From Cerasicoccus frondis (GTDB lineage Bacteria; Verrucomicrobiota; Verrucomicrobiia; Opitutales; Cerasicoccaceae), in the NCBI GenBank assembly GCA_031296915.1, contig JAVDPC010000020.1, positions 58,075 through 122,074 on the forward strand: a DNA stretch of 64,000 bases, written 5' to 3'. A program made the position numbers and the translations under genes. This document shows, one piece after another, positions 30,141 through 51,924 of this stretch (the stretch's first letter is position 1; each line of letters starts with the position of its first letter). The notes under the pieces are model-generated. The model was not told the origin of the DNA and searched no databases. It saw nothing but the letters and a program-made list of their open reading frames with translations.

Positions 30141-30549
30141 CGACGCCTTCGGACAGCTGATACCTGCCAATTGCCTGTAACTTAAGTGCATCAACTAACC
30201 GTTTAGATACCGACTAACATGACCACAAGCCCAATAAGCTCTGCCGCCAAAGCCTTACAAGACAATCGACAGTAAAATTCACGGTTCAACGACTTCATTA
30301 ACCTTACATTAAGATTGCCAATGGTATACTGGAGGCATACAACGCTAAAAAGGCGATCAAACCGAATATTCCAGTGGCTAAAGGGTTTCCTGATTCCACG
30401 GCGTCTTACTATGTTTCCAACTACTTTCACGCAATTTCCATGGCGCAAGGGCTACCTGTCGCCAAGCCAATGGCGTGTGTGCATTCACTGCTTATTGATT
30501 CGTTACCACGATCAATCATTAAGTACATTGAACAAACTGAGCCGATCTC
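30141..30549. other. 409-bp intergenic region with a coding-like remnant
   Basis: A frame open from 30302 to the TAG at 30557-30559 reads like protein (for example VAKGFPDSTASYYVSNYFHA), but it has no ATG in its first 45 codons and its last codons overlap the start of the giant gene. I do not recognise it. It may be a gene fragment or chance. The promoter of the giant operon must lie here or just upstream. Confidence 0.3.
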
Positions 30550-33500
30550 ATGGGGCTAGTGAATTCAGTGAAATATTATTTCAACATAAAGCATCTAACT
30601 CCTACCTTAACCCTTTGCGTGAATATCAATAAATACAATTTAAGAAACTGGAGTGTTTTCCCTTGCACACGCGCTGCCTACCTTACTTTTCTCGCAATAG
30701 GCATAGCGCTCGGAACCGCATCAAGCCTGAAAGCCGCAACCCGTGATGGCCAAGCAATGGCGGTGGCGCTAGAGGCGTTTGATGGCGATGGTTTCCGCAT
30801 CATTCAAGTAGTTGAAGGTCCAGTGGACAGCCGAACATCCCCGAGCTACGGTTACTATGTGTTTGGCGCCTTGATCGATGGCACCAGCGGCATTAGCTGG
30901 AATGGGCAGACGTTTGAAGCGGAACTCGAAGACTCCAGCCTGCCAGCCTACGCCACGGGCGACGATGGCACGGGAGATTATGTCACGCGGCCCGTCGGCT
31001 TTTTGGCGCAGATCGATCCATCCGGCCAGCTGAACTGGGTGCGCTTCATTATGGCGCAGGCCAACGCCAGCCTGGATGACGCCAGCTACCTGACGCTGGA
31101 CTCCAGCACCGTGGCGTATGTGGAAACGGAAGACTGGACAATCAATGCCCTGGGCGACTATTTCCGCGCAGACGAGGGTAAGATGGCCTCGCGCCTGGGC
31201 GGCATTTCGGTCGCTGAAGACTACGGCATTGCACTGGCTTTTAATTTAGGCGCTGCGACCCGGCTTTATGGTAAAAGCGGTTCACAGTCCGCGCAATTCT
31301 GGACCGATGTGGACGTTGCTACCTCAGACACCCCCACCGAATCGGTGAATTTTTTGGAAAATGAATTAGCGCTCTACATCGATGATGGCGCCAGCAACTC
31401 CTCTATTCGCTCGGATTCGTTTATTGAAAACTCATGCAATATTGGAGTCGTCCTGGATTTTGATGGAGACTTGATTGATACGTTTTACCTCCGGGGCGAG
31501 CAGGATTATTATTTGCTGAACGAAGGTGCGGTAACGAATGAAGTGCCCACCTGGATTAGTGATGTCTATTTCGATGAGGGCACGGGCGATGTAGTATTTT
31601 GTGGCTTCTCAGATCTTGTCGGAGGCGCCTATCAGCCTTACACGCGTGGAGTCAGTGATCTAGAGGCAGATATTAACGGCAGCTTAGACAGCACGCTTCC
31701 TTTCGTTGTCAATTTTACTGCTTACTTCGACACCGTCGCCAGTAAATTTAATAATATCAACACCACTACTGGCTCGTACAGTTATCTCTTAGAGAACGAT
31801 ACTGCGGCGAACTATGAGGAAGTAGACTGGCGAGTTACGGGATTCATCGGCCAATTTTCGAGCATCGGAGATCAAGATACTGCGGTGATTGCCAACTTCC
31901 AAGCCTACATTGGACAGTTTTACACACTTTTGGATTCTACTGACGCACAGGAAATCTGTGAACCATATTATAGCACTGGTCTCTTTGCTGTTTATTATGC
32001 TCCTTATCGCATTCTTTACAGTAAAGCAGTTGATTCCATATTCATCGGTGCTGGCGCATCTTATGGAAATCTATATTATTATGAAGGGAAATATGGGGAC
32101 TACACTGAATTCTATGACTACGCCAATTGCCTATATGCCTGCCAGGGATTAACCGCAAAACCGTCAGGGGGTGTAGTCAGCGCCAACGCCACTGCCTCGG
32201 TGGCGGGAGGATACCCAACCGTATTCACGCTCTTTCAATATTCAGGAGGGGTAAAAGATTTTGCAGAAGATGCTTCCAACACCGACAATGTAGTTTCGCC
32301 AATTGCAGAAGATCACCATGGGCACAGCTTCGACCATGTATCCATCGTGGGCCAGTTGGTAAACCCAGGAACTCTGTCCATCAGCACAGATGAAGATGTC
32401 GCAACTGGCAGTAGCAGTACTGCCACAATCGATGTGCCGATCACCATCTGGTCCGAGAATTCTTTTTATTACACCGGAAGCGACGAAGATACTTACAATG
32501 TTGGTGGTGGTGTTTTTGGAATATATGATGATACGCCCTACTATTACGACTATGTTTATGAGTCTGTAGCTGGTGGCAACTCGGGGGACATCACCCAAAC
32601 ACCATTGGAAGCCCAACTGCCCATGCTGCTCTTTTTCCGATATGACGACTCGAGTGGTTCAGTGGAACTAACGCCAGAAATGGCAACCGTGGTGGCCCCG
32701 AAACTAACCGGAGAACATTTCTGGAACACCTATTTCACAGGATCAACCAACTGGAGTAGTCGGACAACCGATAGCGATGACAATCCACTGATTTTCTGGC
32801 CGGTATCTTTGTCTTTAACGGATGATGGCTACGATGAAGCAGAATCAAACAGCGACTACGTGCCTATGCGCTACGATCCGTTGTATATCTACAGTAAAGA
32901 CGAAAAAAAATACATCGACGAGTTGGACACCTTTTACAGCGACGGCACAACGACCAGCGCAGATGAGTATGCATCCGGCGAGTATTTCGACTTCATCTTC
33001 GGCGTTCTGGACGACATCACCCAGGATGATAGCCCAGACTTGAGCTCTGCCTGGGTTGGTGGTAATCGCCTCATCGGTGACGACCTGGGGCAAACTTCGG
33101 CGGACACCCTGCAAATGATTGCGGCAATGAACGATGATGGACAAATCGTGCTCATCGGCACCCTCGCCGCCAACGATGATGATGACTATATTCTGATCTC
33201 ATCTCCCGACAGTTCGACTGACGACACGACCATCATTAATACCTCTTCCAGCATCGATGAACTGTTTGCAGCGTTTTTCTCAATCGATAGCTCCTACGAC
33301 ATCACTGCCCAGACTGGCTATGAAGTGTTCTTCGAACTGCCTGCCTTTATAAGCCCCGATCTGTTAAGCGTTGGCGATGACAGCAGTCTGGGCATCGAAC
33401 CAGATCCGGGCACAGCCTTGCTCGTCGAAAATACGGACTTGGCGATCGAACTGCCTTACCGCTTGTATTATGATATTGATGGCAACCTAACCTACAAGTC

Positions 33501-36500
33501 CACCGATTCCGACGACACAGGCGCGCAAGGCCTCGACAACGATGACAAGCGTATTCGCTATACCTTGGACTCCTATTCAATCGTTGGGAGCGCTACGACC
33601 GAAACCGGCAATGATATCAGCTTCACTTTGACGGAAGACACCTCCATCAAAGTGGATTACACTGCTGAATACAGCACCATTTGGACGGTGAGCGCGACTG
33701 ACGCAGACGACTACGCTGAGCAGGTACTAGACTCATTGCCGGATCCCGTTCCGAACGAGGCATTCTTCTGGACCGATAAAGATGACGCCATCACGCCCTA
33801 TGTGACCGGCGCAGTCAGTGCGCCAGCATCCACTAACAATGGCATTATCGATGGCGCACGCTATGTCGTCACGGAATTCGATCGTGACCTCTACAGCGTC
33901 TATTCCGGCCTGGTGATTGATGATGGCAATAATGAGATCATCTTCGGTGATATCTCCAATTTCACCACTGGAGACATGACGTTCCAAATCCAGTTTCAAG
34001 ATGTAGAATGGGAAGAGGGATACATTTACATATTGCTGCAGATCGACCAAGCGCACGCCAATATGTTACTCTACGCAATATTAGAGGATGACGAACTGAC
34101 CATTTACGCTGAAGTCAGGATATTGGCTGGCTCTCATGTAAACCTTTCGGGAACACTGGATGAATTCGAATCCGGTATGCTGACTTGCGTTTACAGCGGC
34201 CTGGGCACTTCGTCCATAGAATTCGATGTATACCTCCAGGAGGGCAATGACTCAGATGTAGACCAGTCCGATACGGATTCAGTTACCTCAGCCACTGATA
34301 CCTATGAAATGGCGACCTCGGGTGAATGCATTTTCTCACCATCCGATGTGACCGCCTCCTCAAATTTTGCGGTAACCTCTTCTGACTATACCATCATCGG
34401 GGTGCCTGCGACCATCGGCCAGATCCGCTGGTGGGACGTAGCTTTGACGGAAGATCAGGTCGTGAGCTACGGGCAAAAAGTGCTCACTGGCACGGAAAGC
34501 GATTTGGTTGGTTTCTGGTATTTCGAAATTGATGAGGGCAACAGTGAAGAAGACCTGACGGGGAATGGAAACACGGCGACCCTGGCAGATTTCCAGTCCA
34601 ATCCATATGACTTCTTTATCAGCAGTACTCCAGATAGCGACAGCGACTACTACCTAACGCCAACCAGCTACTCGACCAGCATCTTGTCGATGCCCAGCTA
34701 TTCGCAGACGGGCCCGGTAAACCTGAATGTCACCATGCAAAAGCAGTGGCAGTTGGTGATCTCCGCGACCGAGATCGAGGGCACCGCAGCAATCATACCC
34801 GTGGTGCTTGAGTTTGACGAAGAGCCTACGGATCTAGAATCAACCTTGCAGGCGGGAACCTTGGTCCCCAGCACCAATACAGACGGCACGACCGGCATTG
34901 GCACCTACTGGATCGATGAAGGAAAATATGTGGTCATCGGCTGTTTTCAGAAGACGGGCGATTCCACAGGCACGAGCTTAGTCGGCTGGTCCAATGCGAC
35001 AAATGTTGCGGACTTAACATCTGCCCAAAAATCAATGAGCATTACCGATGCGGTTGACGATGGCTTGATCAATTACCTGAGCAGCGGCGTCACCGTCGCA
35101 GCAATCGAGGACTCAAATGATGAGGATGAGACTGTCGATTTAACCTCTGACTCTCAAGGCAAGTTTTATTACTTCGACACACTTGAGATCGAAGATCAGG
35201 TAACCATGACCTGGACCTACAACAATCCGGTTTTTTACTTCGAAACGACGACATCCACGACCGACACCGACGCCGCATTCTACATCGGCGAAAAGCTCTA
35301 CCCCTTCAGCACGGAAGACGATGACAGTATCCGAAATACCGTAACCTACACGGAATCGGATGGCACGACTTCGACCAACTACATCATTTACGAATTGATG
35401 GACGCCTACGGCATTGATGAGAGCTATTGGTCGTCTGTCGAAGTGAGCATTGAAAACACATCCAACAATACGCCAACGCTCAGCCTCATACAGGCCATAA
35501 AATCGACTTCCACAGCGAGCGATATTTTGGGTTGGAGCGCTGAAGAGATGGCGCTCGTGGCGATGCAGCCAGGCATCGTGCAAGCCACTTGGGAGATTGA
35601 ACTCTCTTACACAGATTCGAGTGACATTTCCAATGTGATTTCCGGCTACCTGACGATCGAAGTAGAAGTCCTGGATCCCACCGATAGCGACTACGCCAGC
35701 TTTTACGCCGACCAAATCGTGACCATGGTGCTCGATGCGGGTAATGCGTTACTCGATCCCAATGATGCGGACGATTACATTTTCTATGACTTCATCTACT
35801 GGTCGGGTTCGGATGAAACTCGGTCGACCGTGCTTAACAATGCAACTTACGGCCCCGAGCTCAGTGCGCCTTACGAGGGCTACACTGTCCTTCGATTCCT
35901 GACTACATCCGATGGCACCACGCCTCGGGGAGATCTCAACAGCGAAATCTGGAAAATTCTCGTGGTTGAGTCCGAGGCCTTGAGCTATACCGACAATGCT
36001 GATGGCACAGTGTCGTTTACACTAGGTGGTGAGGCTGTTGATAACGTCTCAACCAATATTGCGACCGCACTGACTGCCTACAACGACTTGGGCGCCAGCC
36101 AGGATAATGCTGGCATAGGAACAGGGCGTTTGATGTCCACCACAACTTATGGCTACCTCGCGCCGGTCAACAACGCCATCTATGAAAGCGTTTCCGACGA
36201 CGCCTACTACCCCGGCTTACCCGACGGTAATATCATCCCGGTGAACACCATCGAATACGCAAGCAACGACGTCTCTGGAGACGACACCCTTCCCTACCAA
36301 GTGGTGGTCGCATGGTTCGTTGGCGGAGATGATTACTTTGGCGCTTACATCCCGTCGAATCCGCTGCAATATACGCCGGTCTATCCCGATTATACCGAGT
36401 GCAATGGCTTCATCACAATTTCGAGCACCCTGGGCAGCCAATCCCTGTATGGTGATGACTCGTATCAGGAGGATGATTCCGCCAGCACACCGAAGTATTC

Positions 36501-39500
36501 GACGCTGCCAACCGCCGATTTCGTCGATGCCTACATCTATTATCAAAATGATCCGGACGAGCCTGGCTATAATCCTAACGAAGAACATGCAATTCTGGCT
36601 GACGCCAATTCCAATACAGAACAAAACAGTTATTCGGATAAAGACGGTGACGTGGTGTTCGCTCTGCGCGACGATTTAAATGTCACCACTGATAATCAAT
36701 CGGATTACACGAACTCGCCAGTGCTCACCTCAGAGCCCTATGTGCTGGTAACTTACTATGACAGCGATAATGGCGTTTACGACATGCTCATTTATGCGGT
36801 CTATAAGGACCAAGCGCCTACTTCTGCCGATGACAGCACTTTGGTGGACGTTGACTTCGACTTGGTCGGTTATGAGGCTGGCACTTTAATTGAGCCGCCA
36901 TACCCGCTAAGCATTGTGATCGGCGCATCATCGGTCCCCTCGTTTTATCAAGCCGATGCATCAGCGCCGAATGTGCCGTTTTGGGAAGATGTCAATGGCG
37001 ACTACTGGACCATTGCCGGAGATAGCGACTACTACGGATTCTTCTTTTATGAGATGACCGGTTCATTCTACTTTCCGGAGCTGACCGACAGTAATGGAAC
37101 TGCAGATTACTCCAATGGCGATGTCATTTCCTGGTACCCCAGCAGCCTGACCGAGCCAATCCCCAGCTACAGCAGCGGGGATGACCTCAAGGCCGACTAC
37201 GAAGTTGATCCCACCGATGCGACTTGGGCTCCGGTCGAGTGGACATTGGATTCCGAGTGGCCAGACAATGTCGCCATTCTCAAAGTCGGCGAAACCATGA
37301 CGTATGGCGGCGGCGATTTTTACAGCGACAACAGTTACTACCCAACGATGCCCACGATCAACTACTCGACCGAAACGGGCGATTTCGAGATCCAGGATGA
37401 AAACGGCACGGGGTCAGGAAGCCTGAGTTACCAATCAACTGCCGATGAGATCGAGTCCGCGCTCAATGGCATGAATTCCTCCAATGGTCCCAACAATGTC
37501 GAAGTGACCGTAACCGGCTCATTCCCGTCCTGGGTGATTACGTTTAATGAAGCTGGCGCTGAAACGATTACCATTTCATCGGATGTTTCGGATACCGCTA
37601 ACTATTCCATGACGTTAACTTCGGTCGTCACCGGGGATGATGTGACCGATACGGACGCCGTCTATTATTTGTATGTATCTGGTGTGAGTGAGAGTAGCGA
37701 TAGCGCAGTGTGGGCAATGACCTCGACCCTGGATGATTCCGACACCACCTCAGCCTTTGCTTTGCGGGCAACGGCTACAGAGCTGGAACTGGCGCTGAAC
37801 AATATGAATGCGGAGACTGGTCCGTTCGGCGACGGTTTCGTCACGGTCACTGGTGAGAACCCAAGCTTTACCGTCACTTGGAATGATGTTGGTTCTCGTG
37901 ATTACTTACTCGAAGCCGACACATCGGTGAACATCTACCCGATCTCATTTGTTGAAGTAGTGGAATCTATTGCTGGAGACGAGGACACCGCTGAAGTTCA
38001 AACCATCACGCTGGTAGCCCAACAGGTGACCGGACTGCCCGACGTGATCGAATGGCTGTCTGGCCAAGTTGTCTTTGACGAGTTGAACCCCGATGGCAGT
38101 GAATACGAGTCGCTCACTGAGGCTTATGAGCAGTCCAGCGTTCGCTTTTATAATCCATTTGCGGCGATTACCGTCGACTTGGAGGGGACGTTCTCCAGTT
38201 CCGTCACAAGCGATACGGAGGTCTTCACGACTTACTCGGGCACAGACTACTCCGACTACGAGTATTTCTACATGTTCTCGGCCAGTCTGCAGAATCGAGT
38301 AGCCTACGATCCCAGCGAAAATCAACTGGCGCTGGTCGGACTCATCAATGGCAGCAGTATCAGCTCAGGCAGTGTGTCTTCTCTGGAAGCGGATACAAAT
38401 TACATTCAGCCCAACGTACTCTCGGGGGATGATTTGGAGGAACTGTTGGAAGATGTCGCGGCTGATGACACCTGGGCGGCGGACAGCACTTCCAGCGGTT
38501 ATATGAATGACGCGTTGCTATCGCTCTACTACATCTCGCGAAATCCCAATGCGGTTTTTACCACAGTGGTGGGCGAGGCGCCAACTGCGCAGACTGGCGA
38601 TAGCGCCGATATCGATGTCGATCTTTATACTTGGCTCGTTGGTCTGGATGACGATGACAGCGATGGTTATGCCGAGCCCGAATCAGTTCTGGGTGAAGGC
38701 GCAGTGGTGACCACCAATTTTGCCTATTTGGTTAACGCGCTTTCGGACGGCTCCTTTACCGGCGCCTACTTTGTGATCGCAGAGAATAACGACAGCTCAT
38801 TGGTTGGCGAAACCGTGGATCTGGAAGTTGTTTACCTGGCGCCGGAACTGGTGACCGGCACCATCATCAGCATTGATCCTACTGACGCATTTCAACAGAA
38901 GCAAACGCTGCGACTGGACCAGGACTTCGGCGCAAATGCTTCCTACTACGAAAGCACCGATTCTTCATCAGTTGATTTAGTGACATTTGACTGGATCTAT
39001 CAATTGCCGACGACAGGCTCGACCAGCTATCCTCAACCGCCGGATGACATCACGACCGATAGTGAAGGCTGGACCATACTTTCCACGCAAACCGGGCAGG
39101 AAATTACCATCGAAGAAGACACCGCGTTACTACTCACCGACTACTGGTTCTACGCCCGCTATAAATCTACCGACGAAACCGAAGAATCCTCCTGGGCGGG
39201 CGCGGCGAATTCATCAACGACCTCTGGCGAATATGTGCCGCAGCTTTCGACGGGCTGGGTAAACCGCGTGCTGGACGCCATCAACTATTTCGAAAACCGT
39301 TACACGGACTTGATTTACACCGACGCAGCGGACCCCTATACGAGCATTATCCAGCAAGCGGGCGCGCCCTACGATGGCGATGTCGCTCTGGATGATGATC
39401 AAGACTACATTGAAGACGTCGGACTGATTGAGTTCTACACCACGCTGTATAATTACGCCTACGATCTCGCTAGCGACGCCGGCGTTGTCGAAGACGTGAG

Positions 39501-42500
39501 TGATGCCCTGCTGAATGCCGCAAACCGCATCGCGTTCCTTTATTATCTCTTGGGCAACGAAGCCTATGCGGACGGCATTGATCCACTGGTTGGCGCAATC
39601 AAGGAGGTCGTCGATCCTGACTCATCCAACTCCAGCTCAAGCCCGGGCGATGTCGGCTTGCAGTATAATGTGCTCCCGCCCAATACACATGCCTTCGATG
39701 AAATGGTCATCGACCTGAACACGGAAGAACTCGCCCTCTTGCGAGGACAGGCGCTCAGTGAGCCAACGGACCCTTCCAACGATCAGCCCAGCACAGGAGC
39801 CTACCCGGTGTATAACCGGCTTTATTGGAACTTTACCGGTGGTGAAGGCCAAACCGCCTACACGCTCAACTACGCAACATCGGATTATGACTTCGATGGA
39901 TTCATCGACGAAAATGACGCCGAGGAACTTTACCCTCAAGGGCATGGCGATGCCTGGGGACACTACCTAAGCTCGGTAGAAATTTACTATGACCTGCTCG
40001 CGCTGGATAACTTCTCCTGGAATTATGACGCCGAACCATACGAAGTCGACGACAGCGTGATCGAAGTCTACTACTGGAACGAGCGTCGCTTTGCACAAAC
40101 CGCAGTAGCCCGAATTCAGTGTGGCATCGATATCCTCATGCGCACTTTCAAAAGCTATTATAGTGAAGATAGCGAAGGGCAATGGGTTGGCTATACCGAT
40201 ACGAATGACTACCGCGCGTGGGGAGTCGAAGGCTGGGCGCGCCGCACCGGTCAAGCGGCGGTGTTTGACTGGGCGACGGCTAATGCGATGGTCCCCGCAG
40301 CGCCTGCGCCAGATAGCGGCAGCTTCACTCTGATCTATGACGGCCAGGAAACAGCTGCCATTGAGATAGGTGATGGCGACTTGTATTCGCTGGATACCTT
40401 GTCGGAAAATATCGAAACGGCTTTGAATGACTTGCTGGGTGATGGAACGGTTTCGGTCGAAACCAGCGCGGACACCGACAGTGTGCTGCTGACATTTGCG
40501 ATTACCTGGGCTACGGCCGACGATACTTACGTGCTGGATGTCGATGTAAGCGATCTCTCGCCCAGCTCGTTTGGCATTGTTTCGGAAGAAACTGCGGGTA
40601 GCTCAGATGATGGAACGGCATCGGTTCAATTACTGAAAATACAACAAGATAATCGCATCTTTGGCACCGTTTCACGCTCAACAATTGAAGACATTGGTCT
40701 GCTGGCGACGAAGGGCGTTTACGTGCAAGAATACTTGGATCGCATTAATAACGGACTGAACCCGATTGGCCTCTCGCCAAACACGGTGCCGTTTTCGATT
40801 GATCCGTCGCTGGTCTTGGACGTTGAAACGAATGACAGCACGTTCAACTCGCACTTTGAGCAGGTCTACGATCAGGCGCTCTCCGCGTTTCGCTATGCGT
40901 TCAAGGTCTACAGTGTCGCGAACATCCAGAAGGTAAATGTGCGCGCCTTAGAGGTCTCGAGCGAAGCGCTGCGCGAAAGCATTGTCCAGAAAGACTTGGA
41001 ATATAAGAACCAATTAAAGAAGTTCTTCGGCTCGCCCTACTCCGGCACCATGGGCACCGGCAAGCTCTACGCCGCCGATTATGATGGTCCCGACTATTAC
41101 CTCTTCAATTACCTGGATAACAACGTGGTCAATGACTACGTAACGCCACTGCCATCGACTTCCTTGGTGGACTTCGTCAGCGAATTCCCCATCGACCTCA
41201 GCAGCACCAAGGGGCTGGGTTCGTCGGACAGCGGCTCAGCCGACAATACACTGGAGAGCGTGTATGGTCATTACTTTACCTCCGATGGATCAAATGCGCG
41301 GACCATCGACTTTCCCTCTGATGACACGGACGACCTGGATGACGATACCGAAATCGAACGACTGGAAGCCGCGTTGGACATGAGCTTTGACGGCAATGAG
41401 TTCAACCTGCCACTGACCGCATCAAACTATGCCTACCTGGCGCCCGACACCTGGGGACAGCGCGATTACTACGGCACGATTCAAATGGCGCTCACCGAAA
41501 TGGTGCAGGCTGAAGGCTCGTTGCGCGAGTCAGTGCAGAAATACGAGAATCTCGTGCAAGAAATCGAAAACCAGATAACCCTGATCCAAGCCAAGTATGA
41601 TGTCTATGATGAGATTCTGGATCTCAAGGTTAATAAAGGAAGCACGATTACGAACCTTAAAGTTTCGGCGGCTAACCTCACTGCCTCTGCTGCGTTCTTA
41701 AATGCGTATGCAGACGCGATCACGAACGAAATAAAAGGCGTTGGGGATTTGAATGAAAAGATTATTGGATTCTCGGTCGATATCACTCCCATTGCGGACG
41801 CGATCGAATATGCTTCCAATCTATTAAGCTACATACCGACAAAGTTGGCTGCAGGATCGACAAGTGCTGCTGCTGACGGCTTGGTGGCAGATGCTATCAA
41901 CGATGAATATTACCTCGATCTGGACACTTACAAAGACGGCTATCCGTTCGAGCTCCAAGAGCAACTGGCCCAGTTGCAAGTCTTGCTCAACAACGAGCCA
42001 CTGGCTCGCTATGAAATCTTCACCCAGATCGAGGTGCTTCGCTCTACGCAGCAAAAGTTCCTCGCCGAGCGCGGTGAAGCTTACATGGTCTGGACAGACC
42101 GCATCTACTGGAACCAAAAACTGGCGGCGACGATTCAGGAGCGCAAGTCGCGCGATATGGCGTTCCGCATTCAGCGCAACCATGCCTTGGAGCAATACAT
42201 GCAGGCCTTCGAGCTCGCCCGCCGCTACGCCTTCCTCGCAGCGCAGGCTTATGATTACGAGACCGCGCTTGATCCCAGTGACGACCAGTACATCGGCCCG
42301 ATGCTGGACTACTTGATGGAAACCACCTTTCTCGGCATGATCACAGGTTACGGCGGGGGCACATCCGACGTGGGTGGTGGTGTTCCGATTTACGGTCAAG
42401 GCGGCATCAGTGAAGTACTCGCCTGGATGCAGGCAAACTTCGCGCAGATCAAGGCGCAGAATGGCCATACTCAGGCCAACTACGAAATCCTGTCGTTCTC

Positions 42501-43359
42501 TCTGCGTGAGGAGCTGGCGGGCATCGAAAAAGACGCCGATGACAGCTCAGACCAAGCGACCGACGACTACTCCTGGCTCCAGTGGCTGACCAGCAGTAGC
42601 TCCGGTCTCAACGGCCAGTCCGAGTTCTATGACGACCTCCGCGACAACAGTTACTACAATCTCTATTGTCGCCCGTGGAATTCAGATGGCGACGCAGTGC
42701 CTGGCTTTGTCGTTTCCTTCAGCACGACGGTGACCCCAGGCGAAGATTTCTTCGGCTACGATCTGGATGGCGGCGACAGCGCCTACGACCCGTCCCGCTT
42801 TGCCACACGCATCTATGGCGTGGCGCTTGAATTCGAGTCTTACGACACCACAAACCTGGCGGCGACGCCGCGCGCCTACCTCGTTCCAGTGGGCAAGGAT
42901 TTCTCACGCGTTCCCGACTCGCTGTCCACAGAAATTCGCTCTTGGAGCGTCGTCGACCAGAAATTGCCCATCGCCATTCCACCCACCGACTACGAGTTGG
43001 AAAGCAATGTCTACGCACCGATCATTGACGGGGTGAATGGCTACTTTGGAGAGATACGCCTGCACTCAGCCTTCTCCGTGGCAACGTCTACGGTCGATCT
43101 GGATTCCTTCGACACCACTTCAACTTACTTCGGCGTCGACCTCGTTGGGCGCTCAGTGTGGAACAGTCAGTGGGTGCTGATCATTCCGCTGGAATCGATG
43201 CACTACAACGATTATACCACCGATCCCACCGACGGCACCGCTTATCAATATTTCCTCCCCAACATCGACGGCACACTGATCGATGGCGACTCGGCCGCGA
43301 CGGGAGGCATCACCGATATCATACTTAATCTGATGACCTACTCCTACTCTGGCAATTAA
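30550..43359 (+). CDS. Giant exported multidomain protein, 4269 residues
   Basis: The frame is open for 12.8 kb. A signal sequence (YLTFLAIGIALGTASSLKA) lies about 40 residues in, so GTG at 30619 may be the true start. The protein is extremely rich in Asp, Ser, Thr, Tyr and Glu. A LamG/concanavalin-like domain is seen at about 1100-1340 (IGQIRWWDVALTEDQV, LVGFWYFEIDEGN). Three copies of a GXFXLXYXGXXT repeat occur near 2273, 2370 and 3255. Residues about 3637-4000 are predicted helical and coiled (SLRESVQKYENLVQEIENQI; RIQRNHALEQYMQAFELARR). No membrane anchor or PEP-CTERM tail is seen at the C-terminus. It heads a four-gene operon with 15-, 11- and 20-bp gaps. Function unknown; adhesion, predation or toxin-like delivery are only guesses. 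Confidence 0.85.
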   Translation: MGLVNSVKYYFNIKHLTPTLTLCVNINKYNLRNWSVFPCTRAAYLTFLAIGIALGTASSLKAATRDGQAMAVALEAFDGDGFRIIQVVEGPVDSRTSPSYGYYVFGALIDGTSGISWNGQTFEAELEDSSLPAYATGDDGTGDYVTRPVGFLAQIDPSGQLNWVRFIMAQANASLDDASYLTLDSSTVAYVETEDWTINALGDYFRADEGKMASRLGGISVAEDYGIALAFNLGAATRLYGKSGSQSAQFWTDVDVATSDTPTESVNFLENELALYIDDGASNSSIRSDSFIENSCNIGVVLDFDGDLIDTFYLRGEQDYYLLNEGAVTNEVPTWISDVYFDEGTGDVVFCGFSDLVGGAYQPYTRGVSDLEADINGSLDSTLPFVVNFTAYFDTVASKFNNINTTTGSYSYLLENDTAANYEEVDWRVTGFIGQFSSIGDQDTAVIANFQAYIGQFYTLLDSTDAQEICEPYYSTGLFAVYYAPYRILYSKAVDSIFIGAGASYGNLYYYEGKYGDYTEFYDYANCLYACQGLTAKPSGGVVSANATASVAGGYPTVFTLFQYSGGVKDFAEDASNTDNVVSPIAEDHHGHSFDHVSIVGQLVNPGTLSISTDEDVATGSSSTATIDVPITIWSENSFYYTGSDEDTYNVGGGVFGIYDDTPYYYDYVYESVAGGNSGDITQTPLEAQLPMLLFFRYDDSSGSVELTPEMATVVAPKLTGEHFWNTYFTGSTNWSSRTTDSDDNPLIFWPVSLSLTDDGYDEAESNSDYVPMRYDPLYIYSKDEKKYIDELDTFYSDGTTTSADEYASGEYFDFIFGVLDDITQDDSPDLSSAWVGGNRLIGDDLGQTSADTLQMIAAMNDDGQIVLIGTLAANDDDDYILISSPDSSTDDTTIINTSSSIDELFAAFFSIDSSYDITAQTGYEVFFELPAFISPDLLSVGDDSSLGIEPDPGTALLVENTDLAIELPYRLYYDIDGNLTYKSTDSDDTGAQGLDNDDKRIRYTLDSYSIVGSATTETGNDISFTLTEDTSIKVDYTAEYSTIWTVSATDADDYAEQVLDSLPDPVPNEAFFWTDKDDAITPYVTGAVSAPASTNNGIIDGARYVVTEFDRDLYSVYSGLVIDDGNNEIIFGDISNFTTGDMTFQIQFQDVEWEEGYIYILLQIDQAHANMLLYAILEDDELTIYAEVRILAGSHVNLSGTLDEFESGMLTCVYSGLGTSSIEFDVYLQEGNDSDVDQSDTDSVTSATDTYEMATSGECIFSPSDVTASSNFAVTSSDYTIIGVPATIGQIRWWDVALTEDQVVSYGQKVLTGTESDLVGFWYFEIDEGNSEEDLTGNGNTATLADFQSNPYDFFISSTPDSDSDYYLTPTSYSTSILSMPSYSQTGPVNLNVTMQKQWQLVISATEIEGTAAIIPVVLEFDEEPTDLESTLQAGTLVPSTNTDGTTGIGTYWIDEGKYVVIGCFQKTGDSTGTSLVGWSNATNVADLTSAQKSMSITDAVDDGLINYLSSGVTVAAIEDSNDEDETVDLTSDSQGKFYYFDTLEIEDQVTMTWTYNNPVFYFETTTSTTDTDAAFYIGEKLYPFSTEDDDSIRNTVTYTESDGTTSTNYIIYELMDAYGIDESYWSSVEVSIENTSNNTPTLSLIQAIKSTSTASDILGWSAEEMALVAMQPGIVQATWEIELSYTDSSDISNVISGYLTIEVEVLDPTDSDYASFYADQIVTMVLDAGNALLDPNDADDYIFYDFIYWSGSDETRSTVLNNATYGPELSAPYEGYTVLRFLTTSDGTTPRGDLNSEIWKILVVESEALSYTDNADGTVSFTLGGEAVDNVSTNIATALTAYNDLGASQDNAGIGTGRLMSTTTYGYLAPVNNAIYESVSDDAYYPGLPDGNIIPVNTIEYASNDVSGDDTLPYQVVVAWFVGGDDYFGAYIPSNPLQYTPVYPDYTECNGFITISSTLGSQSLYGDDSYQEDDSASTPKYSTLPTADFVDAYIYYQNDPDEPGYNPNEEHAILADANSNTEQNSYSDKDGDVVFALRDDLNVTTDNQSDYTNSPVLTSEPYVLVTYYDSDNGVYDMLIYAVYKDQAPTSADDSTLVDVDFDLVGYEAGTLIEPPYPLSIVIGASSVPSFYQADASAPNVPFWEDVNGDYWTIAGDSDYYGFFFYEMTGSFYFPELTDSNGTADYSNGDVISWYPSSLTEPIPSYSSGDDLKADYEVDPTDATWAPVEWTLDSEWPDNVAILKVGETMTYGGGDFYSDNSYYPTMPTINYSTETGDFEIQDENGTGSGSLSYQSTADEIESALNGMNSSNGPNNVEVTVTGSFPSWVITFNEAGAETITISSDVSDTANYSMTLTSVVTGDDVTDTDAVYYLYVSGVSESSDSAVWAMTSTLDDSDTTSAFALRATATELELALNNMNAETGPFGDGFVTVTGENPSFTVTWNDVGSRDYLLEADTSVNIYPISFVEVVESIAGDEDTAEVQTITLVAQQVTGLPDVIEWLSGQVVFDELNPDGSEYESLTEAYEQSSVRFYNPFAAITVDLEGTFSSSVTSDTEVFTTYSGTDYSDYEYFYMFSASLQNRVAYDPSENQLALVGLINGSSISSGSVSSLEADTNYIQPNVLSGDDLEELLEDVAADDTWAADSTSSGYMNDALLSLYYISRNPNAVFTTVVGEAPTAQTGDSADIDVDLYTWLVGLDDDDSDGYAEPESVLGEGAVVTTNFAYLVNALSDGSFTGAYFVIAENNDSSLVGETVDLEVVYLAPELVTGTIISIDPTDAFQQKQTLRLDQDFGANASYYESTDSSSVDLVTFDWIYQLPTTGSTSYPQPPDDITTDSEGWTILSTQTGQEITIEEDTALLLTDYWFYARYKSTDETEESSWAGAANSSTTSGEYVPQLSTGWVNRVLDAINYFENRYTDLIYTDAADPYTSIIQQAGAPYDGDVALDDDQDYIEDVGLIEFYTTLYNYAYDLASDAGVVEDVSDALLNAANRIAFLYYLLGNEAYADGIDPLVGAIKEVVDPDSSNSSSSPGDVGLQYNVLPPNTHAFDEMVIDLNTEELALLRGQALSEPTDPSNDQPSTGAYPVYNRLYWNFTGGEGQTAYTLNYATSDYDFDGFIDENDAEELYPQGHGDAWGHYLSSVEIYYDLLALDNFSWNYDAEPYEVDDSVIEVYYWNERRFAQTAVARIQCGIDILMRTFKSYYSEDSEGQWVGYTDTNDYRAWGVEGWARRTGQAAVFDWATANAMVPAAPAPDSGSFTLIYDGQETAAIEIGDGDLYSLDTLSENIETALNDLLGDGTVSVETSADTDSVLLTFAITWATADDTYVLDVDVSDLSPSSFGIVSEETAGSSDDGTASVQLLKIQQDNRIFGTVSRSTIEDIGLLATKGVYVQEYLDRINNGLNPIGLSPNTVPFSIDPSLVLDVETNDSTFNSHFEQVYDQALSAFRYAFKVYSVANIQKVNVRALEVSSEALRESIVQKDLEYKNQLKKFFGSPYSGTMGTGKLYAADYDGPDYYLFNYLDNNVVNDYVTPLPSTSLVDFVSEFPIDLSSTKGLGSSDSGSADNTLESVYGHYFTSDGSNARTIDFPSDDTDDLDDDTEIERLEAALDMSFDGNEFNLPLTASNYAYLAPDTWGQRDYYGTIQMALTEMVQAEGSLRESVQKYENLVQEIENQITLIQAKYDVYDEILDLKVNKGSTITNLKVSAANLTASAAFLNAYADAITNEIKGVGDLNEKIIGFSVDITPIADAIEYASNLLSYIPTKLAAGSTSAAADGLVADAINDEYYLDLDTYKDGYPFELQEQLAQLQVLLNNEPLARYEIFTQIEVLRSTQQKFLAERGEAYMVWTDRIYWNQKLAATIQERKSRDMAFRIQRNHALEQYMQAFELARRYAFLAAQAYDYETALDPSDDQYIGPMLDYLMETTFLGMITGYGGGTSDVGGGVPIYGQGGISEVLAWMQANFAQIKAQNGHTQANYEILSFSLREELAGIEKDADDSSDQATDDYSWLQWLTSSSSGLNGQSEFYDDLRDNSYYNLYCRPWNSDGDAVPGFVVSFSTTVTPGEDFFGYDLDGGDSAYDPSRFATRIYGVALEFESYDTTNLAATPRAYLVPVGKDFSRVPDSLSTEIRSWSVVDQKLPIAIPPTDYELESNVYAPIIDGVNGYFGEIRLHSAFSVATSTVDLDSFDTTSTYFGVDLVGRSVWNSQWVLIIPLESMHYNDYTTDPTDGTAYQYFLPNIDGTLIDGDSAATGGITDIILNLMTYSYSGN

Positions 43360-43374
43360 TCCTTCGGGGGCATT

Positions 43375-44346
43375 ATGGATAACTTATACCGAATCAACCG
43401 CCACAGATCAAAAGCAATGCATTGGGCTTGGCTGTGCATTTTACTCATTTCACTGCCTGCCGTTGTTCGAGCGGATGGGACCATCACTGAAACCTATGAC
43501 CTGACAGCAGGTTGGAATACGGTTTACCCCAGCGTAGCTCCCACTGAGCCCAAAGTGGCAGATGCATTTGCCGACCTGCCCGACGGTAGTCGTGTATACG
43601 CTTACTTCCCCGCCGAAAACCCTGGCCGATTTGTCGATAGTGGATCCGACGCCGTGTGGAATGGTCCCAGTTGGCAGCGATGGAGCAACACATCGCCCGA
43701 GAGCGAGTTGAACGACCTGTATGCAGTGGTGGCGCAGATACCAATGGTCATTTACGTGCCAGAGGACGCCACGCTCTCTATCGAAGGCGCCCCCGTGGCG
43801 ACTATTGCAGACACTGGAATTTACCAGTTTGATTTACGCGGCCTGATCGTAGATGAGGACAACAGCGTCACCTTCAATGAATTCTTTTCTGCGACGAACC
43901 CGCCAACCGCTGTTTTCGATCTCGTGGACGGTCGTTGGCAGGAAGTATCTCTGGACACTGTAGTCGAACGCGGTCGTGCTTATTGGTTTTATCACGAAGA
44001 CGCCACCAGCTACGATGGCCCGCTGCGTTTTAGGAATCTTCCCTCCGGTTCATTGTACTTCGGCGTAGGTTTCACCACCATCGATTACTCAACCCGTCTG
44101 GATTCGACTTCTCTGGTCATCGAACTCGTGTCCGGCAGCATCGACCTGGAGATTGGTGATGGCTTTCTGGCCGATGAGTTTTCCGCTTTGCTGGATGAGA
44201 TTACGCTCAGTGAAATTTCAGCGTCTCTGGTTTCGAGACTGCAACTACGCCTGGCAAGCGCGAGCGAGAGTATCAGCGGAGAAGCCGTAATTTGCCTGAA
44301 AGACTCACTGGGCTACAGCGCACGGTACTTAACCATAAACTTTTAA
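43375..44346 (+). CDS. Exported protein of the giant-protein operon (GWN-type)
   Basis: 323 residues with a signal peptide (WAWLCILLISLPAVVRA). The mature start ITETYDLTAGWNTVYPSVAP resembles a recurring unnamed family with a GWNAVFLEVQP-like opening found beside giant LamG proteins in planctomycetes and relatives; that resemblance is from memory and not checked. Later blocks include GRWQEVSLDTVVERGRAYWF and YDGPLRFRNLPSGSLYFGVG, suggestive of beta-sandwich structure. It starts 15 bp after the giant gene, behind a G-rich site (GGGGG, 43366-43370). It is probably a partner or accessory of the giant protein at the cell surface. No catalytic motif is visible. Confidence 0.72.
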   Translation: MDNLYRINRHRSKAMHWAWLCILLISLPAVVRADGTITETYDLTAGWNTVYPSVAPTEPKVADAFADLPDGSRVYAYFPAENPGRFVDSGSDAVWNGPSWQRWSNTSPESELNDLYAVVAQIPMVIYVPEDATLSIEGAPVATIADTGIYQFDLRGLIVDEDNSVTFNEFFSATNPPTAVFDLVDGRWQEVSLDTVVERGRAYWFYHEDATSYDGPLRFRNLPSGSLYFGVGFTTIDYSTRLDSTSLVIELVSGSIDLEIGDGFLADEFSALLDEITLSEISASLVSRLQLRLASASESISGEAVICLKDSLGYSARYLTINF

Positions 44347-44357
44347 TATTCTGCACG

Positions 44358-45122
44358 ATGATATTTAGACACCAGAAATTTGCCGCACGCTGGGTGCATG
44401 TCTTGCTGCTTGCTCAGTCTTTACTGGTCACTGCTCATGCGGATGATTCCACCGCAGGTTTGTGGGTCGGCACAGTGGTCATGGACCGTGTTTCGGAACT
44501 GACGCCCTCGACCGATTCTGTCAGCGAAACAGCGACTCCCGTTGCGAGCCCGTTGTCGGTTCGTATATTAATCTTCATCGATGACACTGGAGCGGCCTCC
44601 ATGCTTAAGTGGGCTACGCTAATGCGTTATCAAACAACGACGGGCGACGATGACGACTTGGAAGAAATCGTTATTGTCGACACCGATGATTTTTATGTGT
44701 CGGGAGTCATTGGCTACACCACTGATGGCAATCGCTACATCGGACGGCGTTTTTCCACGGCATTTTATGATTGGAGCGATGATGGCGCACTGAGCATGGA
44801 TGGCGATGTGACTTCTGGATCACTGAGTACAACGCTTAGCCTCACTGCGACCTACGCCACCAATCCGTTTTACCATCGCTACCATAACATGCATCAAGAG
44901 GGGCGCGACATCACGCGTTACATAACGATTGATAATTTGGCGAGTATTGAGCAAACCTCCACGGAAAGTTATGCGGCTCTATCAGGTGATTACATGGAAG
45001 TTATCAATGGACTTGCCAACAATGACACTGACACGACCACACGCGACACTTCCATCATCATCCAAGGCACCGTGTATCTGGTCCAGGTATCGAGCGTTAG
45101 CTCATTGGGGATTCCAGATTAA
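44358..45122 (+). CDS. Exported protein of the giant-protein operon (LWVG-type)
   Basis: 254 residues from ATG at 44358, 11 bp after the preceding stop; an in-frame ATG at 44292 overlaps the upstream gene and would not give a signal peptide at the N-terminus. The signal peptide is WVHVLLLAQSLLVTAHA. The mature start STAGLWVGTVVMDRVSEL and the block NPFYHRYHNMHQEGRDITRY recall an unnamed, recurrent extracellular domain (GLWVGEV...NPFRHKYHPDH...ITR) of planctomycetes and verrucomicrobia; this is recollection, not a search result. The two His pairs in that block could bind metal. Function unknown. Translation is likely coupled to its neighbours. Confidence 0.7.
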   Translation: MIFRHQKFAARWVHVLLLAQSLLVTAHADDSTAGLWVGTVVMDRVSELTPSTDSVSETATPVASPLSVRILIFIDDTGAASMLKWATLMRYQTTTGDDDDLEEIVIVDTDDFYVSGVIGYTTDGNRYIGRRFSTAFYDWSDDGALSMDGDVTSGSLSTTLSLTATYATNPFYHRYHNMHQEGRDITRYITIDNLASIEQTSTESYAALSGDYMEVINGLANNDTDTTTRDTSIIIQGTVYLVQVSSVSSLGIPD

Positions 45123-45142
45123 TCAGAAAAGCAGGCTGCGTC

Positions 45143-48100
45143 ATGACATCGAACACATTCAGAAATTTCTTAGCGGTCACACTTTGCTCGGCATGCCACT
45201 GGGTTTATGCCGGCGTGCCCGAACCCGACTTCATTGTTTATGGAAAGATCACCGATACTGGCGGGATCCAACCGATAGCGATCGATCAAGGGACATTGCG
45301 CTGGCAACTCTCTGGCGCGGGTAAGGAATTATCATTCGAGACCGACGTTGAAATTTTCGGGTCCGATACGACCTTCTCCTATCGCATCAGTTTCCCAGCC
45401 GAAGTTGGCTTTCCAAGCTTTCCCTCCAAGACAACCGTCGATCTGGAAGGAGACGGTGAGCGATACGCCACATCAACCATTGAGCTGGAATACCTCGGGC
45501 AAATCTACTCAGTGAATGTCGACCGAAGCGACAGCGATGCGATGCGACTGGAGCAAGACCAGCGTGGGCGCAACTTCCGCATCGACCTAGATGTTCATTT
45601 ACCGCAACTCGACTCCGATGGCGATGGCATGCCGGATAGTTACGAGGACCAATATGACGGCTTGGATAAATTAGTCGCCGACGCCGATGACGACCTCGAT
45701 GGAGACTCCGTCACCAATGGAGATGAATACGCCCAACAAACCGACCCATCTGTCGCCGATACCGCGCCAACGATCATCTCTGATCGATTGAACGCCATAT
45801 TTGGCGGCGCCGTCGCACTGCGCATTGATATCGCCGACTTGGATGATAATCCGACCATCAACGCACTCGCGCCCGACCTGTCTGACCAAGCGGATGTCGT
45901 CATCACACTCGATGCGATCTCCGCCAACTTTGCGCTGCAAAAAATAACCGCTGGCGCGGGCAGTGGCATCGACGCTTACCAAACACTGGCTGTTGGCAGC
46001 ACCTTTACTCTAGCGGAGATTTACAACGGACAAATTCTGCTGACACACGATGCCTCGGATATCCTGGATGGCGTAATTTCGATTTCCGTAACGGACTCCA
46101 CTGGCGGCAGCGACTCCGCCGATATACCGATTAAAGTCTGGAATCCGGCTGGGCCTGACGGTGACGACATACTCGCCTGGATCGACGCCACCGCTTCCAC
46201 GGTGGATATCTTTGGCAAGTCGGTCGTGACTGGTGAAGTCAACGGACGAACCTCGATCCTCTTCGATGGAGCGACGCGCTACACGACAAGCACAAAGGGT
46301 TGGCTGGCCGACGATGGCTGGCACATCAGCGCCGCCTTTACCAGTGAGTCCGCCGAGAAGCAGCAACTCTACAACACGCCACGCGGCGGGTTGCGTCTCT
46401 ACGCGTTCGACGATTTACTCTTTCCCGGCCACCTGAAACTAACGGGGAGCAACCAATCTCTGGTCAGCGAGTCGTCCACCTCCATGGGCGAATTGACCTT
46501 GCTCAGCGCCAGCATGCACGACGGCGAGCGAGGGTTTTCAGTCAATGACTCCAGCCCTGCGGGCAGCTTCGAACTAGCGAACGACAACACACTGTCCGCG
46601 CTTGATGAAATTGGTGGCAACGCAACCAACGGATATTTTCAAGGCGGTTTGCATGAACTGATGATCTTTGCGGATGAGCTCAATGATTATGACTTTGCCG
46701 ACCAACAATCCTATCTCAAAGCCCGCTGGGAGAATTCAATCATCGTCGATGCTCTGCAATCAACCAGACCGGTATTCTTCATTGCCCCGTCTGCGCTACT
46801 GAGTGAGGACGATTATACCAGCAACTTTACGCCAAACTATGGAGAGGCTGTTTCTCACATTCTTCTGGGCTGGAACCGCAATGTAGTCGCCTATGGCGGC
46901 TACGCGGATGACGAGTTCTGGGTTGGCGGCGGCAATAGTTGGCTGGCCGGAGGAATCGGGGCCGATCAATTCACTTACCTGAGTGGCGGAGAGGAACAAG
47001 TCATCGCCGATTTCAACGAGAGCGAAGGCGATACCCTGGCATTACAGTATCTGTTCAACGGCATAGTCTCGGATGAGATCGAAAAGTTCGTCAACATACG
47101 AGAAGATGAGTCCGACGCCTTGGTTGAGGTGTTCTTGCAGGGCGATAACACGCTCGATCCGGATCTCGTCGTGCGCCTGCTCAATCGAAGCGATCTGGAC
47201 CAGAGCCAACTGGCTTCGCTGTATGCAATGGGCGCCATCGACTGCGGCAGCGTCCGCCCTGCCCTGGAGCTACAAATGAATACGATCGACGGCGAGGCCG
47301 TTGAAGTCGACGATAGCCCTGCCAAAATTGGCGTCACGCTGGTCGAGGGAATTTGGCCGGAAGGAAAATACGTCCACCTTGACCTCGATACCGATCAAGT
47401 CCTCGGCGAGGATTTTCGCCTGTTTGCTAATCTCTACGATCCCAATCTCGGAGCCTACGTTTTAACCGAACTCTTTGATTACCGTGTGCCGGTGAGCCTC
47501 AAGGAAAATGATAAAGTCATTCAGGTTTCCATCCAACCCATCAGCAATCAGCAGACCGAGCCTGAGCGCACCATCGCGGTGAACGCTATTCCGCAACCAA
47601 ACCGCTTTACGTTGGATGAGACGTTCGCAGCGGCGGAGGTGACCATTATCGATGGACTCCCATACCTCATCATTCAACCGACCATTGCCGAACTGAACCC
47701 AACGCTCTCCGGCGAAGGTTTCCGCATTACGAGAGTAGGCGTTACTGATGTGCCGCTGACCTTTGACGTCGTCATGGAAGGCACTGCGATAAACGGCACG
47801 GACTACAGCTACGTCTCGACTCAGCACACATTGCCCAGTGGATCAGAAGAGATTTTAATTCCCATCAACGCCCTGCGCTATGCGCAAAGCCAAGGCTCAA
47901 ACGTAGTCGCTCTGCGCTTGGCGAGCGGGACCAAGTATCAGCTCGAATCATCGACAACGGCTCAGATCATACTGACAACCGAAGCCATCGTAATCAATAT
48001 CGATGCCGTCCAACCCAAGGCGGTCGTGAGCGACAACAATCCCGAAGCGCTGATATTTTTACAACTGACTGGGCAACCTTCGAGCAACGTCACCATGGTG

Positions 48101-48775
48101 CCTGTCGAGTTTCACGGTAATGCGAAACTGTCAGAATACAGCATCAGCGTCATCAACACTCAGGGCAGTGAGCTCCCGCTTTCGATTAATTCCGTGACCC
48201 GAAGCGGCAACATATTCCTGTTGCCCGGAGAAACATACGCCATGATCAAACTCGTTCCCAAGAGCAGTATCGATCTTTCCGGCGGGAAAAAGTATGTCGA
48301 TGTGAACCTGGGCGATCCTGCCAGCGGCTCCACCTACTCCGTCGGCAATCGTGATGAAGTCACGCTCTACATCGTGGGCGACTTCTCAACCTGGGCGCAG
48401 GCTAATAACAATGGTGAGGCGATCGATGACCTCGGACAGTGGGCCTCCCAAACAGCCAATGGCCAAGGCGTCTCGAATCTACTCGCCTACGCTTTTGGAC
48501 TCGATCCACAAAATCCGACAATCGCCCAAGCCGGAATCTTCTTCGAAAGAAATACGAATCAAAATCTGGAGCTGTGGATGCCGTATTACCCGGGAGCAGT
48601 CGGCGTCGAAGTTGAGCTGCAACAATCGCTCAGCTTAGGCAATGACTGGGGCGCGACCACAATGACTCCGGTCCGATCTGAAGTGCGCAATGGCCAAGAC
48701 TATCAGGTTTACAATCAAGACTCTGAACCACAAGACGCAGCGTTCTATCGGGTGCAAGTCGATTTGGTTGAATAG
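45143..48775 (+). CDS. Exported multidomain beta protein with Ca-binding, RTX-like and Calx-beta-like parts
   Basis: 1210 residues with a signal peptide ending near HWVYA. In order: an N-terminal beta domain; a thrombospondin type 3-like calcium loop (DSDGDGMPDSYEDQYDGLDK, about 155-190); a cadherin-like stretch ending ILLTHDASDILDGVISISV; a LamG-like segment (about 350-530); an RTX-like block (GGIGADQFTYLSGGEEQVIA and DFNESEGDTLALQYL, about 605-640); two Calx-beta-like repeats (about 710-840 and 850-960); and a C-terminal module (LLAYAFGLDPQNP) common in exported proteins of this phylum. It closes the four-gene operon 20 bp after the third gene. A calcium-stabilised adhesin or surface scaffold is a reasonable inference. 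Confidence 0.75.
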   Translation: MTSNTFRNFLAVTLCSACHWVYAGVPEPDFIVYGKITDTGGIQPIAIDQGTLRWQLSGAGKELSFETDVEIFGSDTTFSYRISFPAEVGFPSFPSKTTVDLEGDGERYATSTIELEYLGQIYSVNVDRSDSDAMRLEQDQRGRNFRIDLDVHLPQLDSDGDGMPDSYEDQYDGLDKLVADADDDLDGDSVTNGDEYAQQTDPSVADTAPTIISDRLNAIFGGAVALRIDIADLDDNPTINALAPDLSDQADVVITLDAISANFALQKITAGAGSGIDAYQTLAVGSTFTLAEIYNGQILLTHDASDILDGVISISVTDSTGGSDSADIPIKVWNPAGPDGDDILAWIDATASTVDIFGKSVVTGEVNGRTSILFDGATRYTTSTKGWLADDGWHISAAFTSESAEKQQLYNTPRGGLRLYAFDDLLFPGHLKLTGSNQSLVSESSTSMGELTLLSASMHDGERGFSVNDSSPAGSFELANDNTLSALDEIGGNATNGYFQGGLHELMIFADELNDYDFADQQSYLKARWENSIIVDALQSTRPVFFIAPSALLSEDDYTSNFTPNYGEAVSHILLGWNRNVVAYGGYADDEFWVGGGNSWLAGGIGADQFTYLSGGEEQVIADFNESEGDTLALQYLFNGIVSDEIEKFVNIREDESDALVEVFLQGDNTLDPDLVVRLLNRSDLDQSQLASLYAMGAIDCGSVRPALELQMNTIDGEAVEVDDSPAKIGVTLVEGIWPEGKYVHLDLDTDQVLGEDFRLFANLYDPNLGAYVLTELFDYRVPVSLKENDKVIQVSIQPISNQQTEPERTIAVNAIPQPNRFTLDETFAAAEVTIIDGLPYLIIQPTIAELNPTLSGEGFRITRVGVTDVPLTFDVVMEGTAINGTDYSYVSTQHTLPSGSEEILIPINALRYAQSQGSNVVALRLASGTKYQLESSTTAQIILTTEAIVINIDAVQPKAVVSDNNPEALIFLQLTGQPSSNVTMVPVEFHGNAKLSEYSISVINTQGSELPLSINSVTRSGNIFLLPGETYAMIKLVPKSSIDLSGGKKYVDVNLGDPASGSTYSVGNRDEVTLYIVGDFSTWAQANNNGEAIDDLGQWASQTANGQGVSNLLAYAFGLDPQNPTIAQAGIFFERNTNQNLELWMPYYPGAVGVEVELQQSLSLGNDWGATTMTPVRSEVRNGQDYQVYNQDSEPQDAAFYRVQVDLVE

Positions 48776-50376: not shown

Positions 50377-50382
50377 AGGCGA

Positions 50383-51405: not shown

Positions 51406-51455
51406 CCGGCCAAACTTGCGGACCCGATCAATAGAATGCAAATCTATTGCAGTAG

Positions 51456-51839: not shown

Positions 51840-51924
51840 TAAATTACCAATTCCCCTAAACAATTGACTATCAATAAATTGATTTTCAATGCAAAAATCA
51901 GAAAATATGATACTTAATACTATT

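What the first reader, a model, noticed from the sequence alone, without database searches (positions are those of the whole stretch)
30550..48775. Four-gene operon of exported proteins led by a 4269-residue protein: candidate undescribed surface or secretion system
Four same-strand genes with 15-, 11- and 20-bp gaps, all with signal peptides, cover 18.2 kb. The leader has a LamG-like domain, internal repeats and a large helical C-terminal region. The second and third proteins resemble unnamed families (a GWN-type opening; an LWVG...NPFRHKYH...ITR-type domain) that I recall beside giant proteins in planctomycetes and relatives. The fourth has calcium-loop, RTX-like and Calx-beta-like parts. 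Conserved composition and order would indicate one machine, possibly an adhesin, predation or particle-degrading complex.
Basis: partly seen in the sequence, partly recalled or inferred. Interest (0 to 1): 0.85.

Follow-up and report, generated by a model that had tools for sequence, protein, structure and literature searches.

The report
Exported Tc-syringe-like giant protein operon
A conserved set of exported proteins found in many environmental bacteria is built around a giant protein whose C-terminal part is predicted to fold like the channel subunit of Tc toxin syringes, but it has export signals and different partner proteins, and what it does is not yet known.

Summary
The four genes are real and their relatives stay together. 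The giant's C-terminal ~1,160 residues define a family for which Pfam has no entry. A profile of its middle part found 287 loci in reference genomes; the best 80 carry eight phylum labels. There, a fused gene2+gene3 homologue lies upstream in 48 of 48 loci with room, a gene4-type protein downstream in 63 of 69, and a PPIase in 36 of 43. Of 387 genomes of the phylum, all 55 with the giant hold gene2/3, against 4 strong cases among 332 without.

An AlphaFold model of a relative's core (pLDDT 80) matches Tc toxin A subunits: the top 18 Foldseek hits are all TcA (best E 3e-8; next row E 0.37). Sequence searches alone do not show this. Unlike Tc toxins, these giants have signal-like N-termini and no TcB/TcC gene was found beside them.

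Best reading: a Sec-exported, TcA-like pore or injection complex with its own partners. Fold well supported; pore activity, cargo and target inferred. A new variant of a known kind.

The parts
29205..30194 (-). Parvulin-type PPIase with a lipoprotein-like N-terminus, divergent to the giant; fifth member of the set
   Evidence: Pfam Rotamase_2 E 6.4e-15; a PPIase of this kind lies on the same strand as the giant in 46 of 80 loci, 36 of 43 with both flanks
30550..43359 (+). Giant protein, 4269 aa, with TcA-like C-terminal core
30550..30735 (+). Signal-like N-terminal region of the giant (residues 1-62)
   Evidence: read by eye; a home-made rule finds signal-like N-termini in 52 of 59 relatives' giants
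37375..37944 (+). Two internal repeat copies inserted in the conserved part
40312..40575 (+). Weaker third repeat copy
39238..43356 (+). Conserved core of the giant (residues 2897-4269)
   Evidence: alignment A3, 69 rows; model of relative L025
41476..42264 (+). Region aligned to the two very long helices of the model (channel-like hairpin)
42472..43356 (+). Region aligned to the model part that matches the TcB-binding domain of TcA
   Evidence: last ~420 residues match the family profile with 411.8 bits
43375..44346 (+). P2, GWN-type exported protein (323 aa)
44358..45122 (+). P3, exported protein (254 aa); fused to P2 in the three other copies of this genome
44874..44894 (+). HxxHxxH motif of P3
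   Evidence: present in 27 of 27 rows of A5
45143..48775 (+). P4 (1210 aa): N-terminal EPD...YG module, TSP3-like part, then a passenger with a weak RTX-type match

Best explanation
The genes encode a Sec-exported complex built around a TcA-like giant. SHOWN: the gene set is conserved across phyla, and the predicted structure of a relative's core resembles Tc toxin A subunits over the long channel helices and the C-terminal TcB-binding domain. INFERRED: the giant crosses the inner membrane by Sec and is folded with help from the PPIase; it oligomerises and presents a variable N-terminal recognition part (propeller, LamG or PA14 in relatives); the paired long helices act as a channel or needle that inserts into a target membrane; P2/P3 or the P4 N-terminal module sits at the C-terminal end, where TcB sits in Tc toxins. 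P4 passengers (Calx-beta, RTX, cadherin, propeller types) would be accessory adhesion parts. Cargo, target and the step across the outer membrane are unknown.
Confidence: 0.6

Rival explanations
1. Adhesin or scaffold: the giant keeps a TcA-derived fold but has lost channel function, and the set builds a surface structure for attachment to particles or other cells.
For: N-termini with propeller, LamG and PA14 and P4 passengers with Calx-beta, RTX and cadherin domains are typical of surface binding; no cargo gene found; hydrophobic tip weak in the window protein.
Against: The most conserved part is the channel-like and C-terminal core, not the binding part; in 49 of 69 cores the most hydrophobic 19-residue stretch lies in the hairpin.
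Confidence: 0.25
2. The TcA likeness is convergence: a long helical hairpin followed by a beta domain of a giant surface protein unrelated to Tc toxins.
For: No sequence match over threshold; low TM-scores; unrelated coiled coils with high Z.
Against: Foldseek separates all 18 TcA rows from every other protein by more than two orders of magnitude in E (2.3e-3 to 0.37); the C-terminal beta part matches without the long helices and in the same order to the last residues.
Confidence: 0.1
3. The giant is the A subunit for Rhs-type proteins with SpvB and TcdB-mid domains encoded elsewhere in the genome, i.e. a dispersed Tc toxin.
For: This genome encodes such a protein with a signal-like N-terminus and a nuclease toxin domain; TcdB-mid genomes are enriched for giants (6 of 15 against 49 of 372, p 0.011, not corrected for kinship or genome size); in one genome a P2-P3 pair lies on the same strand as such a gene, a sensor kinase gene between them (L149).
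Against: 49 of 55 giant genomes have no TcdB-mid match; no giant core on any of the seven fetched stretches around TcdB-mid genes, and a P2/P3 match on one of seven.
Confidence: 0.12
4. Neighbouring but unrelated exported genes.
For: The four window proteins share no Pfam family.
Against: Conserved neighbourhood and co-occurrence.
Confidence: 0.02

Closest known systems
TcA subunit of Tc (ABC) toxin complexes: TcdA1, XptA1/2, TcaA-TcaB, YenA2
   Same: Predicted fold of the core: long channel helices leading to a C-terminal beta domain; large size; TcA description from passages of PMC11435725
   Different: No sequence match over threshold; signal-like N-termini; no TcB/TcC gene found beside it; conserved PPIase, P2/P3 and P4 partners; found mainly in Verrucomicrobiota and other environmental groups
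YenTc of Yersinia entomophaga
   Same: Its A-subunit chains are among the hits (9c4k_B, 6ogd_B, 9cbc_B); it also carries accessory proteins, chitinases (passages of PMC11435725)
   Different: Released by a lysis system, with nearly all of the released proteins lacking signal sequences (passages of PMC10847048)
TcdB/TcaC-type polymorphic toxins with signal peptide and SpvB domain (Zhang et al. 2012, PMC3482391, passages)
   Same: Sec-type signal; a protein of this kind is encoded in this genome
   Different: Rhs-type toxin carriers; the words TcA and TcdA do not occur in the held text; not linked to a giant in the stretches examined
Giant proteins of Omnitrophota and related bacteria (PMC12057145, one section and passages)
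   Same: Giant exported proteins with suggested predatory roles
   Different: The protein described there has beta-helix, PL6 and RHS-like parts; no TcA-like core is mentioned in the section read

Membership tests
TcA subunit of Tc toxins | Alpha-pore-forming domain of long antiparallel helices | tested here: met
   Model helices 586-677 and 690-848; Foldseek and VIA-align matches to TcA; prediction of a relative only
TcA subunit of Tc toxins | TcB-binding domain fold at the C-terminus | tested here: met
TcA subunit of Tc toxins | Sequence signature Pfam PF18276 (TcA_TcB_BD) over its cut-off | tested here: not met
   0 of 25 and 0 of 20 giant-carrying genomes; sub-threshold inside a giant in 4 of 45
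TcA subunit of Tc toxins | Hydrophobic membrane-inserting tip | tested here: inconclusive
   Most hydrophobic stretch of the core lies in the hairpin in 49 of 69, not in the window protein
TcA subunit of Tc toxins | Alpha-helical shell, neuraminidase-like domain, Ig-like receptor-binding domains, linker | tested here: inconclusive
   The part before the core was not modelled; Pfam finds propeller, LamG and PA14 in relatives' N-termini
TcA subunit of Tc toxins | Homopentamer, trefoil knot, pore transition | not testable with these tools
   Needs multimer prediction or experiment
Tc toxin complex | TcB/TcC gene (TcdB-mid, Rhs) next to the TcA gene | tested here: not met
   TcdB-mid in 6 of 55 giant genomes; no giant core on the fetched stretches around these genes (7 stretches). 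The 80 named loci were not searched for TcdB-mid
Tc toxin complex | No Sec signal; released by another route such as lysis | tested here: not met
   Signal-like N-termini in 52 of 59 giants by a home-made rule; Tc side from passages of PMC10847048

The most novel reading that the evidence does not exclude
A widespread Sec-exported injection machine homologous to TcA, in at least eight phylum-level groups, that uses P2/P3 and P4 where Tc toxins use TcB/TcC, and that may also be the unrecognised A subunit for signal-peptide-bearing SpvB/TcdB/Rhs toxins. TcA-type injection would then be mainly a trait of free-living environmental bacteria rather than of insect pathogens.
Probability: 0.3. Interest if true: 0.88.

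Novelty: new variant of a known kind. Interest (0 to 1): 0.72.

Why it matters
A survey of 133,722 RefSeq genomes placed TcC proteins almost only in Proteobacteria and Firmicutes (PMC7861908, passages), but it required an Rhs-type TcC; a TcA-like family without TcC would have been invisible to it. If the giant is a working channel, syringe-like protein delivery extends to abundant environmental bacteria such as Verrucomicrobiota, with another export route and new partner families, and a class of giant surface proteins without any annotation becomes testable as a machine.

Tried and rejected
Considered and rejected: chance neighbourhood; anti-phage system (PADLOC, 5 proteins, no family at E<=0.01). 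Viral carriage: viral-contig scan with A2 gave 31 pattern matches, none a relative. Plasmid carriage: tblastn of one core, no match.

Led nowhere: PDB sequence searches with A3, A4, A5, A8 and one single protein; Pfam over 69 C-terminal parts, scattered weak matches only; PF18276 in 20 further genomes, one weak match outside a giant. Self-BLAST did not list the internal repeats; direct alignment did. Promoter scan upstream of the giant: one site, 1.2 expected in shuffles. The NCBIfam match of the giant to a LapA retention module (E 0.04, 14.1 of 50 bits) is far below its cut-off.

Not done: structures of P2/P3 and of the giant's middle part. The P2/P3 job was interrupted; prediction and fold search were later switched off. 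TcdB-mid was not searched in the 80 named loci.

Full report
OBSERVATION. Pfam at E<=1 lists no family for the giant or gene 2 and only sub-cut-off matches for genes 3 and 4. NCBIfam gives one match over its cut-off, an RTX-type target domain in gene 4 (TIGR03661). Two internal repeats of the giant are well supported, a third weakly. LamG is not detected in the window protein. The divergent ORF 29205-30194 is a parvulin-type PPIase (Rotamase_2 E 6.4e-15); its lipoprotein-like start is read by eye. Downstream, on the other strand, lie zinc-uptake-type ABC genes and a Fur-family gene.

PARALOGUES. Genes 2 and 3 each have three further matches in the same genome, at the same three places. There they form one gene of 562, 562 and 620 codons, followed directly by giants of 3045, 3035 and 3444 codons and by a gene-4-like ORF. 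A profile-type search with one gene-4 start found the window's and two of these; in the third copy (contig C2) the gene-4-like ORF is recognised by eye only. A PPIase-like gene follows gene 4 in two copies; in the third it lies upstream, two ORFs away, one an ECF sigma factor, the other kinase-like by eye. The window giant aligns to the other three over its C-terminal half at 27-33% identity. A profile of the last ~370 residues hits exactly four places in the genome, the four giants. The window copy is unusual: the giant comes first, genes 2 and 3 are separate, and its core is a long branch (2.22) in the tree.

RELATIVES. A scan of genome contigs with the conserved middle part (A2) found 287 loci; the best 80 were kept. 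By record titles: 45 Verrucomicrobia, 18 Pseudomonadota (Wenzhouxiangella, Marinicella, Lysobacteraceae and others), 5 Acidobacteria, 4 Lentisphaerae, 3 Kiritimatiellae, one each Omnitrophota, Nitrospirae and Sumerlaeota, 2 unlabelled. In 387 genomes of the window's phylum 55 hold the giant (which scored at most two candidates per genome). The neighbours of the 80 loci were mapped in six frames with profiles built from members in these same loci (E<=1e-5). P2/P3 lies upstream on the same strand in 48 of 48 loci with at least 2.5 kb upstream; in a few it is some kb away. P4 lies downstream in 63 of 69 with at least 1.5 kb downstream; the 67 plus-strand matches all include the N-terminal module. 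A same-strand PPIase is in 46 of 80, and in 36 of 43 with both flanks; all three in 34 of 43. Nine loci have two P2/P3 ORFs, the first a P2 alone. Genome-level count: all 55 giant genomes have a P2/P3 match; of 332 without the giant 14 have one, 10 of them weak matches to the GWN part, which I dropped, and 4 strong.

SEQUENCE EVIDENCE is weak. No Tc chain appears in PDB searches. PF18276 stays below its cut-off; it has sub-threshold matches in 5 of 25 and 1 of 20 genomes. Four of these six lie in giants, each about 1.3 kb after the conserved middle part; two do not (positions compared). Two of 14 control genomes also ring below cut-off.

PARTNERS. P2/P3 has no Pfam or PDB match of note; HxxHxxH is present in 27 of 27 aligned relatives. 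P4 proteins share the N-terminal module and carry Calx-beta (24 of 60), RTX (15), Cadherin_3 (14), TSP3 (14) and propeller (Lactonase, 12) domains. N-terminal parts of giants carry SBBP repeats (8 of 23), Laminin_G_3 (5) and PA14 (3). These scans used subsets: the window's gene 4 plus 59 of 67 (the rest incomplete or over 1,500 aa), and the window's N-terminus plus 22 of 59.

TC COMPARISON. The TcdB mid domain is found in 15 of 387 genomes, 6 of them giant carriers (p 0.011, uncorrected). On seven stretches around such genes in these six genomes no giant core was found, several being short contigs. On one (L149) a P2-P3 pair lies on the same strand as an SpvB/TcdB-mid/RHS gene, with a sensor kinase gene between. 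In the window's genome one such gene carries SpvB, FG-GAP, TcdB-mid, RHS and Tox-HNH-HHH domains and a signal-like start. I do not file the system as a Tc toxin; the claim is that the giant's core is TcA-like in fold and may work like it.

MECHANISM (0.6). Export by Sec, folding helped by the PPIase, an oligomeric giant with a channel, P2/P3 or P4 at the C-terminal end. Shown: gene set, conservation, predicted fold. Inferred: oligomer, channel, docking, target, outer-membrane crossing.

LITERATURE. Six full-text searches listed no paper on a TcA-like protein of Verrucomicrobiota or on this gene set, judged from titles and abstract starts of the rows shown. Only open-licence papers are held, so this is no proof of absence.

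Noticed in passing
L139:5174-11440 and 11456-11992 (own genome, contig C39): Protein with SpvB, TcdB-mid, RHS and Tox-HNH-HHH domains and a signal-like N-terminus, followed by a 179-aa gene that may be its immunity gene.
   Followed up: partly
L149:2391-15413 (G148, contig C264): SpvB/TcdB-mid/RHS gene, a sensor histidine kinase gene, then a P2-P3 pair, all on one strand; the P3 protein also carries Laminin_G_3; no giant on this 16-kb contig.
   Followed up: partly
L140:6083-16852 (own genome, contig C22): 3589-aa ORF with a weak TcdB_midN match; ORFs beside it look Rhs-like by eye.
   Followed up: no
L013:2034-6012: ECF sigma factor and a kinase-like ORF between the C2 giant set and its PPIase-like gene; possible regulators.
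   Followed up: no
window 48848-51863: Zinc-uptake-type ABC genes and a Fur-family gene beside the set; P3 has an HxxHxxH motif, link untested.
   Followed up: no
L031, L036, L070, L084, downstream of P4: Four recurring ORFs of 362-416 codons after the set in Marinicella.
   Followed up: no
L053, L054, L055, L059, L063, L072, L073, L081, L088, L093: A recurring ~1200-codon ORF (627 at the locus edge in L081) downstream of the set; Pfam on the L063 copy gives weak beta-helix and Ig-like matches below cut-off.
   Followed up: partly
window 22731-25982: 1083-aa protein with a CBM96 match.
   Followed up: no
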